64,000 nt of DNA from Methylotenera sp. (GTDB lineage Bacteria; Pseudomonadota; Gammaproteobacteria; Burkholderiales; Methylophilaceae): contig JABFSF010000026.1 in the NCBI GenBank assembly GCA_013140755.1, forward strand, positions 41,971-105,970. Direction: 5' to 3'. Shown piece after piece: positions 38,441 through 42,352 of this stretch (its first letter is position 1; each line of letters opens with the position of its first letter). Made by a program: the position numbers and the translations under genes. Below the pieces are notes generated by a model, which worked only from the letters and a program-made list of their open reading frames with translations, ran no database searches and was not told the DNA's origin.

Positions 38441-41400
38441 CTACCAATCAACTTGGTCAATCTCCAACATTAAGCGATGCGTATTGATTAACGCCGCGAT
38501 TATCTTTTGATAATGCACAATATCTTCATGGTTTAAGGCACCACCTTTGCGGTCTTTTAACCATTTTTGCGCGGGCTGGTAGCCGCCAATGTAAAAGCTC
38601 CAAGCTAGTTCTGGCACGTTTTCAAAATACTGTGTGGCGTTAATGTAAACCTTGCCCGCTTCAAAACTTGGTTTATCCACCACATTACTACCACCAATCG
38701 GGTAATTAATAGCTATGCTTTGCGAACCAATATTCATGTGAGTCGCAGGGTAATCCTCTAAAAGATGTGTTTGGCGTAACTCGCCACCCAAAGCCACTAA
38801 TTGCCAAAACGTAGCGGCATCTTTAGGGTAAGGCACACGCGGAAAATCTATTTTTAAAAACTCTTTATAGGTTTCGCGGTAAGTTGGGCTGTGCAACACG
38901 GCGTAAATGTAATCTAGCAGGTCAATGGGCGCAAATGCAACTACCCCGTCGCTACGCGCCACCCCTTCATTTTGAAGGGGAATAAACTCAGCGGATAATT
39001 CCCCTTCTTTAGAAGGGGTGGATGAGCGAAGCTCAGACGGGGTAGTTGAGGTGGCACGAAGTGACGGAGTAGTTATATTTTGTCTCACAAGCTCAATCAC
39101 ACCACTCAAATTCTTTTTAACTTCAATATCCTGCACATGCAAAACATTCAAACCTAGCCCTTTTAAAAACGTATCGCGTGTTGCATCATATTCTTGTTTA
39201 TCATCGTGCGAGCTACCGTCAATCTCAACAACCAGCGCACACTCATGACAATAAAAATCAACAATATAGTTTCCAATAACACGCTGTCTGTCAAAATCTA
39301 AGCTGTTAAGTTGCTTGTTTTTAACTGCGTTCCAAAATAATACTTCGCTTAAATTGCCTGCTTTGCGTAGCTCACGCGCCTTTTCTTTTAGGGCGGGGTT
39401 ATAGGGTAGTTCGTTTAACTTCGCAACTACCCCGTCGCTACGCGCCACCCCTTCAACTACCCCGTCTGAGCTTCGCTCATCCACCCCTTCTAAAGAAGGG
39501 GAATTAAAACCATTTGCTTCTATTCCCCTTCGGTACGAAGGGGTGGCGCGTAGCGACGGGGTAGTTGCTTTTTCAGCAGTAAATGTAAGCCCCAAACCCT
39601 CCGCGATGACGCCCACGATTTGCATATTGAGGTTGGGCTTCTTACGGGTGGTTTCGGCGAGTAAGTCAGTGGAATCGGGGTAGGTGTAGAGTGGGAATAA
39701 AAGCCCTGCACCATACTGACCAGCTTGTCCTGTGAAATTTCTATCACATAAATTGCTTGAAATAAAAATTCCATAAAGCTCAGTAATTGCTTGTCTTGGT
39801 AACAACAGTGCTAAATTTTCTGACAACATATGTCGCATGACGGAAAATCTATGGCGCACAACTTTTTTTAAGTCATAGCATATATTTCTAGTGTCAAAAG
39901 GACGGTAATTGTATATCTCATTGTCACTATCAAAGCGATTGAAACTTACTAAAGCTTCATCGTCATGAGTTGAAATTCCACTTGAATTTATAATGAAAAG
40001 TTCATTCAAATTGATAAATTTTTTGTATTGAACTTCTACTTCAAAATCTTTCACCGCAAAGAAATAATCAGGTGCTTTCACTTCCAACTCTTGCCAAGGC
40101 ATACTCATAATTGCGCCCGCATTCAAAGCGTCATATTTAGCTTCTCGCTTGCCATATAGGCTGTGGTGAAATACTTTGGCTAATTTTTTGCCACCTGCAA
40201 CTACCCCGTCATCACTACGTGATGCCACTCCTTCATTTTGAAGGGGAATAAATTCAGTGGACAATTCCCCTTCTTTAGAAGGGGTGGCACGAAGTGACGG
40301 GGTAGTTGAAGGGGTGGCGCATAGCGACGGGGTAGTTGTTTTACCCGTTTTAACAAACAAGTTAATGCTCACGCCTTGCATAATGTCAAACACGTTTTCA
40401 TCTTTGCTGCCATCGGGCGCGGTTTCTTTCTTTTTGGCGTTGCCATGCAGGTCTAAAATGTAAATTTCATCAAAACTTTCCAACAAACTTTTACGCATTT
40501 GACGATGAATTAAGCCATCTATAAAGCTGTTGTTGCTAATGTAAGCCAACACGCCTTCGCCGTTTTTATCAATAAAATGTTGCCCAAAGCGAATGAATTT
40601 AATGTAATCGTCTGATAGCGGCTGTATATTGCGTTCATTCAAATCTTTTTTGTAATCTTTGAGTAAATCTTGTATCCAATCGCTTTTGTTGCTGCTGCTC
40701 ACGCTATAAGGCGGGTTGCCCATCACCACCATGACAGGCGCATCGCGCTTAATGCGGTTGGCTTCGTTGGCTTCTACGCTTAGATAGTTAAACAGCGGCA
40801 AATCGGGCGCGTCGTCGTTTTCTAAACTATTGGTGAGGTAAATGCGCAGGCGGTCTTGTGACGTTTTAACTACCGTTTCTAAAGGCACTACCCCGTCACT
40901 TCGTGCCACCCCTTCGTTCCGAAGGGGAATAGAGGCCGATGGTTTTAATTCCCCTTCTTCAGAAGGGGTGGCACGAAGTGACGGGGTAGCCGCGTAAGCG
41001 CCAGTTTCTGTCAGCAGCATATCTAGCTTGAGGTGCGCCATGGCGTAGCTGGTCATCAGTAGCTCAAAACCGTTAAGCCGTGGGATTAAATGCTCTTTGA
41101 CATATTGCGGCCATGCGCCTTGCATATTGGCAAACTGTTTGCCATAAATGTGGCGCACTACTTGCGCTAAAAACGTACCCGTGCCCGTGGCGGGGTCTAG
41201 TATTTGTACTTTGTGGATTTCTTTAGTGAGCTTTTCTGTTTTGCCTTTTTTGCCTGCGCCTTGTACTTCTACTGTGATTTGCGTTTTGCTGGTATCGCCC
41301 AAGCCTTGTGGTAGCTTAAACTTGGTTTTTAAAATATCATCCACGGCGCGGACGATGAAATTCACCACTGGTTCTGGCGTGTACCAAACACCACGCGCTT

Positions 41401-42352
41401 TACGCAGTTTTGGGTCGTACTCGGCTAAAAATGTTTCGTAAAAATGTACCACTGGGTCTTGCTGGCGCGTAGCACGGCCAAAGTTTTGCATAATGCTGGC
41501 AACATCGGTTGCCAGAAAAATTTGCACCAATTCTTCTACTATCCAAAGCAGGCGTTTACCATCACTATCGTCTAAATTGTAGCCCGCGACCGTGCGAAAA
41601 AGCTGCCGCAAAAATGGGTTGCTTTGCGGGATTAACCTTGCCGCTTCTTCACGGCTAAAGTTTTGTAGAGTTGGGTCGTGGTAGCGTGCTGCAAACATGC
41701 CGTAGGCAATGGTTTGTGCGTAAATGTCGGCAAAAGCGGCGTTACTGATGTCGTGTATGAGAACGGTTTTAAAAGCTTCATACTGGTTTTTAAGCTCGCT
41801 TTGGCTTTGATTGGCATCATCTTCATCTAGTGCTTTGTGTATCACATCGGCCATCAGTTTGGCTTTAGCCGCCATCATTTGCGCAAGTTTTACAGGCGAT
41901 TTTATGCTTTGTGTGACGGTGAGCGCAAAGTTTTGAATCAGGCTGGCGAATGTATCAAAGTGTTGTGGGTTGGCAAACACTTTGCCGTTGCTCACTGCGC
42001 CAATCGCGCAACTGGCTTTTAATTCACCTTGCTTATAAAAGTGAAATTGCAGGTAATCGGTAATAATGAGGTTGTCGAGCGCGGCTTTGTAGCGGTTAAA
42101 CTGTTCTTGATACGCTTTGCTACCTAGCTCTGCGCCGATGTCTTTCGCCTCAATATAGCCTAGGGGGATGTCTTTGCAGCTTAAAATATAATCAGGCGCA
42201 CCGCAGTCAATGCGTTTGGGTTCATTGGTAATATCCACATTGGGCAAGAGTGCTTGTAGCAAGTTTTGCAAGTCCCCACGATAACTGTGTTCAGTGGCTT
42301 TGCCCGTTTGAAATAACGCGGCAACACGGCGGATATATTCTGCGATGGTCAT
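38441..42352 (-). CDS. Single-polypeptide restriction-methyltransferase (type ISP/IIG-like, no helicase) with four in-frame repeat insertions and an embedded DUF559 domain
   Basis: N-terminal PD-(D/E)XK-like GAPDYIL..LGYIEAKD; MTase motif I DPATGTGTFLAQ; motif IV NPPY; C-terminal target-recognition-like region; internal TTPSLRATPS...EGVARSDGVV peptides; no helicase motifs seen. Confidence 0.88.
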   Translation of the reverse strand: MTIAEYIRRVAALFQTGKATEHSYRGDLQNLLQALLPNVDITNEPKRIDCGAPDYILSCKDIPLGYIEAKDIGAELGSKAYQEQFNRYKAALDNLIITDYLQFHFYKQGELKASCAIGAVSNGKVFANPQHFDTFASLIQNFALTVTQSIKSPVKLAQMMAAKAKLMADVIHKALDEDDANQSQSELKNQYEAFKTVLIHDISNAAFADIYAQTIAYGMFAARYHDPTLQNFSREEAARLIPQSNPFLRQLFRTVAGYNLDDSDGKRLLWIVEELVQIFLATDVASIMQNFGRATRQQDPVVHFYETFLAEYDPKLRKARGVWYTPEPVVNFIVRAVDDILKTKFKLPQGLGDTSKTQITVEVQGAGKKGKTEKLTKEIHKVQILDPATGTGTFLAQVVRHIYGKQFANMQGAWPQYVKEHLIPRLNGFELLMTSYAMAHLKLDMLLTETGAYAATPSLRATPSEEGELKPSASIPLRNEGVARSDGVVPLETVVKTSQDRLRIYLTNSLENDDAPDLPLFNYLSVEANEANRIKRDAPVMVVMGNPPYSVSSSNKSDWIQDLLKDYKKDLNERNIQPLSDDYIKFIRFGQHFIDKNGEGVLAYISNNSFIDGLIHRQMRKSLLESFDEIYILDLHGNAKKKETAPDGSKDENVFDIMQGVSINLFVKTGKTTTPSLCATPSTTPSLRATPSKEGELSTEFIPLQNEGVASRSDDGVVAGGKKLAKVFHHSLYGKREAKYDALNAGAIMSMPWQELEVKAPDYFFAVKDFEVEVQYKKFINLNELFIINSSGISTHDDEALVSFNRFDSDNEIYNYRPFDTRNICYDLKKVVRHRFSVMRHMLSENLALLLPRQAITELYGIFISSNLCDRNFTGQAGQYGAGLLFPLYTYPDSTDLLAETTRKKPNLNMQIVGVIAEGLGLTFTAEKATTPSLRATPSYRRGIEANGFNSPSLEGVDERSSDGVVEGVARSDGVVAKLNELPYNPALKEKARELRKAGNLSEVLFWNAVKNKQLNSLDFDRQRVIGNYIVDFYCHECALVVEIDGSSHDDKQEYDATRDTFLKGLGLNVLHVQDIEVKKNLSGVIELVRQNITTPSLRATSTTPSELRSSTPSKEGELSAEFIPLQNEGVARSDGVVAFAPIDLLDYIYAVLHSPTYRETYKEFLKIDFPRVPYPKDAATFWQLVALGGELRQTHLLEDYPATHMNIGSQSIAINYPIGGSNVVDKPSFEAGKVYINATQYFENVPELAWSFYIGGYQPAQKWLKDRKGGALNHEDIVHYQKIIAALINTHRLMLEIDQVDW
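38940..39074. repeat. Palindromic repeat array 1 (full element 38940-39047 plus right-arm half copy 39050-39074)
   Basis: actaccccgtcgctacgcgccaccccttc...gaaggggtggatgagcgaagctcagacggggtagtt + ggtggcacgaagtgacggagtagtt. Confidence 0.93.
39075..39425 (-). other. DUF559 (Vsr/very-short-patch-repair endonuclease-like) domain embedded in frame between arrays 1 and 2
   Basis: KLNELPYNPALKEKARELRKAGNLSEVLFWNAVKNKQLNSLDFDRQRVIGNYIVDFYCHECALVVEIDGSSHDDKQEYDATRDTFLKGLGLNVLHVQDIEV. Confidence 0.9.
39426..39566. repeat. Palindromic repeat array 2 (left-arm half copy 39426-39455 plus full element 39456-39566)
   Basis: actaccccgtcgctacgcgccaccccttca + actaccccgtctgagcttcgctcatccaccccttc...gaaggggtggcgcgtagcgacggggtagtt. 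Confidence 0.93.
40200..40337. repeat. Palindromic repeat array 3 (full element 40200-40307 plus half copy 40308-40337)
   Basis: actaccccgtcatcactacgtgatgccactccttc...gaaggggtggcacgaagtgacggggtagtt + gaaggggtggcgcatagcgacggggtagtt. Confidence 0.93.
40887..40989. repeat. Palindromic repeat array 4 (single full element)
   Basis: actaccccgtcacttcgtgccaccccttcgttccgaagggg...ccccttcttcagaaggggtggcacgaagtgacggggtag. Confidence 0.93.

What the first reader, a model, noticed from the sequence alone, without database searches (positions are those of the whole stretch)
38940..39566. DUF559 nuclease domain nested in frame inside a restriction-methyltransferase, bracketed by palindromic repeat arrays
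On the minus strand, the restriction protein runs ...GLGLTFTAEKA, then a repeat-encoded peptide (TTPSLRATPSYRRG...SLEGVDERSSDGVVEGVARSDGVVA), then a complete-looking DUF559 domain (KLNELPYNPALKE...VVEIDGSSHDDKQEYDATRD...), then a second repeat-encoded peptide (TTPSLRATSTTPSELRSSTPSKEGEL...EGVARSDGVVA), then resumes with FAPIDLLDYIYAVLHSPTYRETY. The reading frame is kept throughout and the DUF559 acidic/His residues look intact. The arrangement recalls a homing nuclease sitting in its own mobile repeat and surviving in host coding sequence. Mobility and function are inference; repeats and frame are directly visible.
Basis: partly seen in the sequence, partly recalled or inferred. Interest (0 to 1): 0.88.

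Follow-up and report, generated by a model that had tools for sequence, protein, structure and literature searches.

The report
Nuclease-carrying palindromic element nested in genes
A small DNA-cutting enzyme gene, wrapped in mirror-image repeats, sits in frame inside an intact restriction-enzyme gene; relatives have the uninterrupted gene, and similar packages sit in frame inside about a dozen other bacterial genes, including a genome's only copy of its main DNA polymerase gene, which points to an apparently undescribed kind of mobile element that is translated as part of its host protein.

Summary
A Methylotenera Type ISP restriction-methyltransferase (38441-42352, minus) carries an in-frame insertion at 38937-39568: palindromic repeats, a complete DUF559 nuclease, palindromic repeats. 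The genome's nine strict repeat matches and its only DUF559 all lie in this gene. Orthologues without the insert, one a paralogue inside a relative that also has a filled copy, show empty sites. The same nuclease-plus-repeat unit lies in frame in a different methylase in another Methylotenera; Polaromonas has that methylase empty, with the element just past its stop codon. Across bacteria 70 of 126 DUF559 loci have flanking inverted repeats, against 2 of 978 control segments. DUF559 is nested in frame in HsdM, HsdR, HsdS, MmeI-like, YgiQ-like, asparagine-synthase-like genes and a genome's only DnaE. The nuclease is under purifying selection, and its model resembles homing endonuclease I-Bth0305I. 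Best reading: a nuclease-encoding palindromic mobile element, homing-like, without splicing, tolerated as a translated loop insertion. Cutting and movement are inferred, not shown. In-frame palindromic elements are known (RPE, REP); I found no published link to a DUF559 nuclease in the open library searched.

The parts
38441..42352 (-). host gene: single-chain Type ISP / Type IIG-like restriction-methyltransferase, 1303 aa with inserts
   Evidence: Type_ISP_C, N6_Mtase; PADLOC REase_MTase_IIG PDLC03610, matched in 5 stretches
38937..39568 (-). site 3: the whole insertion (repeats + DUF559 + repeats)
   Evidence: absent from orthologues L061 (G148:C12), L063 (G158), L064 (G171)
39074..39427 (-). 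DUF559 (PD-(D/E)XK / Vsr-EDxHD fold) nuclease domain, 118 aa, no ATG of its own
39426..39565 (-). left repeat block of site 3: half-unit ACTACCCCGTC-stem-CCACCCCTTC..., a diverged partner, then GAAGGGGTGGCGCGTAGCGACGGGGTAGT
38940..39079 (-). right repeat block of site 3: half-units plus a complete dimer 38940-39046
40200..40339 (-). site 2: palindromic dimer without nuclease, in frame, plus an extra half-unit
   Evidence: absent from L061, L063, L064
40887..40999 (-). site 1: palindromic dimer without nuclease, in frame, in the methyltransferase region
   Evidence: absent from G126, G156, L061, L063, L064

Best explanation
The insert is a small mobile element made of a DUF559 nuclease gene bounded by inverted palindromic repeats. 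It has landed in frame, probably in an exposed loop, of the restriction-methyltransferase and is translated as part of that protein. It has no splicing function: it persists because the repeat is stop-free in the frame used, the nuclease folds as its own domain, and the host enzyme tolerates the insertion. Shown by sequence: empty sites, the same unit in other genes, purifying selection on both nuclease and host, linkage of repeat to nuclease. Inferred: the nuclease recognises the palindrome or its G-rich tail (possibly as a hairpin or cruciform), cuts there, and repair copies the element or its bare repeats to the new place, as a homing endonuclease gene does. Bare repeat dimers, as at sites 1 and 2, would be by-products or unoccupied targets. 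My step estimates: mobile as a unit about 0.85; nuclease responsible about 0.6; cut-and-copy at palindromes about 0.45.
For: Empty sites in orthologues and in a paralogue of a filled copy within one genome, G148:C12 against C10. The element in a different methylase in G128 (L046); the Polaromonas orthologue (83% identical) is empty there, and its own 81%-identical nuclease (to the window's) with the same repeats lies just after the stop codon. Nested in-frame DUF559 in other hosts, with junctions mapped on solved structures: between E. coli PolIII alpha 578 and 583, between 7ylz 90 and 94, between 3khk 496 and 503. G545 has no other DnaE match. Inverted repeats at 70/126 DUF559 loci against 2/978 controls. 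Repeat and nuclease co-occur: 6/6 against 1/46 genomes in the genus, p 3e-7; a more general palindrome over 187 family genomes, p 3e-11. Nuclease dN/dS mostly 0.04-0.09, one close pair 0.15; host 0.02-0.17. G148 against G156: nuclease dS 0.18, host flanks 1.2 and 1.6; third-position test p 2e-8. Fold nearest I-Bth0305I after another DUF559 protein. Longer inner stems differ in letters yet stay complementary. No Rfam intron.
Against: No cleavage, movement or excision was observed. No target-site duplication or shared target sequence was recognised. About 44% of DUF559 loci lacked a strong flanking inverted repeat within 250 nt, and one nested case, L114, lacks one. Bare repeats exist without the nuclease (G151). 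The lineage-exchange signal rests on one pair of genomes, and ordinary recombination could give it. Relatedness among genomes was not corrected for in the co-occurrence tests, and the general palindrome pattern was derived from DUF559 loci. Related genomes share site 3, so the five Type ISP cases are not independent insertions.
Confidence: 0.6

Rival explanations
1. Passenger model: the palindromes are moved or copied by another activity (a tyrosine transposase of the RAYT kind, replication slippage, template switching), and the DUF559 gene was caught between two of them and is carried along.
For: Bare repeats at sites 1 and 2, and intergenic in G151, which lacks the nuclease. Nine of 28 genomes with the general palindrome lack DUF559. 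In-frame REPs and RPEs without any coded nuclease are known (PMC3733652).
Against: Y1-type transposases were not found in G126 (90% complete) or G156, which carry the repeats; the window genome has one, on another contig. The nuclease is under purifying selection. The association recurs across phyla with different repeat sequences.
Confidence: 0.22
2. Domain fusion with function: DUF559 is an accessory nuclease recruited by restriction-modification enzymes, and the repeats are just flexible linkers.
For: Ten of thirteen tabulated nested hosts are restriction or modification genes. Three genomes of other families carry window-type relatives next to hsdS.
Against: Hosts also include DnaE, a YgiQ-like and an asparagine-synthase-like protein. 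Orthologous restriction enzymes lack it. Only 3 of 76 loci in a separate set have a restriction gene near by, two of these being nested hosts. The linkers are DNA palindromes whose stems stay complementary when letters change.
Confidence: 0.1
3. Specificity-shuffling device: sites 2 and 3 flank the most variable stretch of the enzyme (about aa 720-930, presumably the target recognition domain), and the repeats plus nuclease promote exchange of that cassette.
For: All five filled copies have both site 2 and site 3, and the stretch between them is the most divergent part of the gene.
Against: The repeat-free paralogue G148:C12 has an equally divergent stretch, so exchange does not need the repeats. 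Site 1 and the DnaE, YgiQ-like and AsnB-like hosts do not fit.
Confidence: 0.06
4. Self-splicing element (intein, group I or II intron) removed from protein or RNA.
For: Nested in conserved genes, one of them a single-copy dnaE; nuclease of a fold used by intron-borne homing enzymes.
Against: No intron family in 14 loci by Rfam; no intein domain in the Pfam scans; the frame is open across the whole insert; bare repeat copies share the behaviour.
Confidence: 0.02

Closest known systems
Rickettsia palindromic elements (RPE) and intragenic REPs (PMC3733652; PMC10969869)
   Same: short palindromic repeats inserted in frame in protein-coding genes, often as inverted dimers, translated as extra peptide
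   Different: as described there they carry no nuclease gene; this one carries a nuclease between the repeats, and its repeat does not fit the CGTC consensus as described in PMC3733652
EDxHD homing endonucleases (I-Bth0305I, PDB 3r3p) and homing endonuclease genes
   Same: catalytic-domain fold; nuclease gene inside a host gene with empty alleles elsewhere
   Different: no intron or intein around it; flanked by palindromes; nested in many unrelated genes, so no single conserved target site; no added DNA-binding region was seen
REPtrons (RAYT transposase genes with REP sequences)
   Same: enzyme gene flanked by palindromic repeats, with bare repeats elsewhere
   Different: a PD-(D/E)XK-like nuclease instead of a Y1 tyrosine transposase; nested in frame in genes
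DUF559 proteins: NGO0050 (PDB 3hrl) and E. coli YcjD (NCBIfam PRK09767)
   Same: same family and fold
   Different: 3hrl is annotated only as a putative endonuclease-like protein; in E. coli ycjD is a free-standing chromosomal gene between sapF and fabI

Membership tests
DUF559 (PF04480) | profile match above the curated cut-off over the full domain | tested here: met
   100.4 bits against 20.6, profile 3-107 of 109
DUF559 (PF04480) | conserved acidic/His residues and nuclease fold | tested here: met
   E28, D57, H74 invariant and D70 at least 90% in 39 sequences; model pLDDT 90, nearest 3hrl
EDxHD homing endonuclease | EDxHD-type catalytic fold | tested here: met
   3r3p TM 0.64/0.76, E 1e-4; motif residues themselves not aligned to 3r3p
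EDxHD homing endonuclease | carried in a self-splicing intron or intein | tested here: not met
   no Rfam intron, no intein domain in Pfam scans
homing endonuclease gene | alleles of the host gene without the element | tested here: met
homing endonuclease gene | element history differs from that of its host gene | tested here: inconclusive
   clear in one pair, G148/G156; G128/Polaromonas positions differ
homing endonuclease gene | cleaves the empty site | not testable with these tools
   needs biochemistry
RPE / intragenic REP | palindromes in frame within ORFs | tested here: met
RPE / CGTC REP | CGTC tag, 8-9 bp stem starting with A-T pairs, CCA tail (PMC3733652) | tested here: not met
   repeat has a GTC next to a small variable stem and a separate CCCCTTC..GAAGGGG stem; read by eye against the published description
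REPtron | RAYT/Y1 transposase between the repeats | tested here: not met
   DUF559 lies there instead; Y1 genes do not track the repeats

The most novel reading that the evidence does not exclude
DUF559 genes with flanking palindromes are an undescribed, widespread class of autonomous mobile element whose nuclease spreads palindromic repeats, including in frame within essential genes, without any splicing: the missing enzyme for at least some intragenic palindromic repeats.
Probability: 0.5. Interest if true: 0.9.

Novelty: new variant of a known kind. Interest (0 to 1): 0.76.

Why it matters
In-frame palindromic insertions in bacterial genes are a long-known puzzle (RPE, intragenic REPs), and PMC3733652 states that CGTC repeats apparently lack a dedicated transposase. 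A nuclease family that travels with palindromes and sits in frame in a genome's only DnaE gives a concrete candidate enzyme for such repeats and a way in which whole domains can be added to working proteins without splicing. E. coli K-12 ycjD belongs to the same family, so the idea can be tested in a laboratory strain.

Tried and rejected
First repeat patterns with wrong spacing gave nothing. Close relatives in viral contigs: none. Intron and intein reading: no support. Presence/absence of the E. coli ycjD locus: some strains have efflux genes next to sapF instead, which is not a clean empty site. A general link of free-standing DUF559 with restriction loci: not found, 3 of 76. AlphaFold2 of the host fragment failed (pLDDT 30 with 4 sequences) and is not used. 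Whole-genome download was not available. Literature searches for DUF559 with palindromes found no prior description in the open library; subscription papers are not covered.

Full report
What is there. The minus-strand ORF 38441-42352 encodes a single-chain Type ISP restriction-methyltransferase of 1303 aa. Its Type_ISP_C domain is split by a DUF559 nuclease domain (residues 988-1092) that lies between palindromic repeats. The insertion spans 38937-39568. Two more in-frame repeat insertions, without nuclease, lie at 40887-40999 and 40200-40339. In the 2.61 Mb genome the strict repeat pattern has nine matches, all in this gene, and DUF559 occurs once.

Empty sites. Orthologues in the same genus and family (G158, G171) and a paralogue inside G148 itself (C12; the filled copy is C10) lack sites 1-3 with the frame kept. 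At site 3 the G148 paralogue reads TFTTEKTDQANTFAPIDLLDY where the window has TFTAEKA-[insert]-FAPIDLLDY. Site 1 is filled in the window and G148:C10 but empty in G126 and G156; a fourth site is filled only in G143. In G059, of another genus, site 3 holds a different palindromic insertion, which I read as a CGTC-1 REP dimer from the description in PMC3733652. Site 3 is therefore a permissive position that two repeat kinds have entered.

Other loci, same repeat. In G128 a close nuclease (81% identical to the window's) with the same repeats is nested in another DNA methylase. Polaromonas has that methylase (83% identical) without the insert, and carries its own nuclease (81% identical to the window's) with the same repeats just beyond the stop codon. 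G151 has an intergenic dimer and no DUF559 match. In three genomes of other families of the order, relatives at 64-68% identity with related palindromes lie next to hsdS.

Other loci, other repeats. DUF559 is nested in frame in an MmeI-like enzyme (L048), a YgiQ-like radical SAM protein (L049), HsdM (L050, L224, L183), HsdR (L226), HsdS (L230), an N6/N4 methyltransferase (L219), an asparagine-synthase-like protein (L220), an Eco57I-type methylase (L114, without a strong flanking repeat) and DnaE (L225). In L225 the insert falls between E. coli PolIII alpha residues 578 and 583, and that complete genome has no other match to the polymerase domain. Over all loci an inverted repeat across the gene scores at least 35 in 70 of 126, against 2 of 978 control segments from the same loci. 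A recurrent layout is a C-rich/G-rich hairpin followed by a G-rich tail; where the two sides of the hairpin differ clearly, the tail points to the nuclease in 36 cases and away in 16.

Selection and history. Pairwise dN/dS for the nuclease is mostly 0.04-0.09 with one close pair at 0.15, and 0.02-0.17 for the host parts measured, so both appear to be kept functional. Between G148 and G156 the nuclease has dS 0.18 while host flanks have 1.2 and 1.6; third-position identity is 100/112 against 452/701, p 2e-8. This fits transfer of the element apart from its host gene, although ordinary recombination could do the same. The window nuclease has no ATG of its own, and L050 has no start codon at all from -45 to +8, so there it can only be made as part of the host protein.

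Enzyme. AlphaFold2 on 39 sequences gives pLDDT 90. Foldseek puts it next to NGO0050 (a DUF559 protein) and then the homing endonuclease I-Bth0305I catalytic domain, with Vsr further down. Conserved E28, D57, D70 and H74 suit that kind of active site; the residue-by-residue match to Vsr is from memory and was not aligned here.

Verdict. Best reading: a palindrome-flanked nuclease gene that moves in a homing-like way and survives in coding sequence because its insertion is translated and tolerated. Mobility is well supported by comparison; cutting and copying are inferred. The pieces are known separately (in-frame palindromes, homing nucleases, REPtrons). I did not find the combination described in the open library, which does not hold subscription papers.

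Noticed in passing
L065 (G059), Type ISP orthologue, site 3: A different in-frame palindromic insertion, CGTCATTCCCGCGAAAGCGGGAATCCA ... TGGATTCCCATTTTCACGGGAATGACG, encoding SPVIPAKAGIH, at the same site where the window has the DUF559 element; it reads as a CGTC-1 REP dimer.
   Followed up: partly
L245 (E. coli K-12 MG1655), ycjD between sapF and fabI: E. coli ycjD is a free-standing DUF559 gene. The region queried around it gives a median of 4 matching places per E. coli genome, including a 41-base palindrome-region match downstream of the gene; copies were not mapped one by one.
   Followed up: partly
L225 (G545), dnaE: The only DnaE of a complete genome carries an in-frame DUF559 insertion.
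   Followed up: yes
window 38935-40339: Sites 2 and 3 flank the most divergent stretch of the restriction enzyme, presumably its target recognition domain.
   Followed up: partly
L247, L248, L249: Relatives of the window nuclease with related palindromes lie directly after hsdS, before RhuM-like genes; in L247 a repeat-encoded peptide also leads into the hsdS frame.
   Followed up: partly
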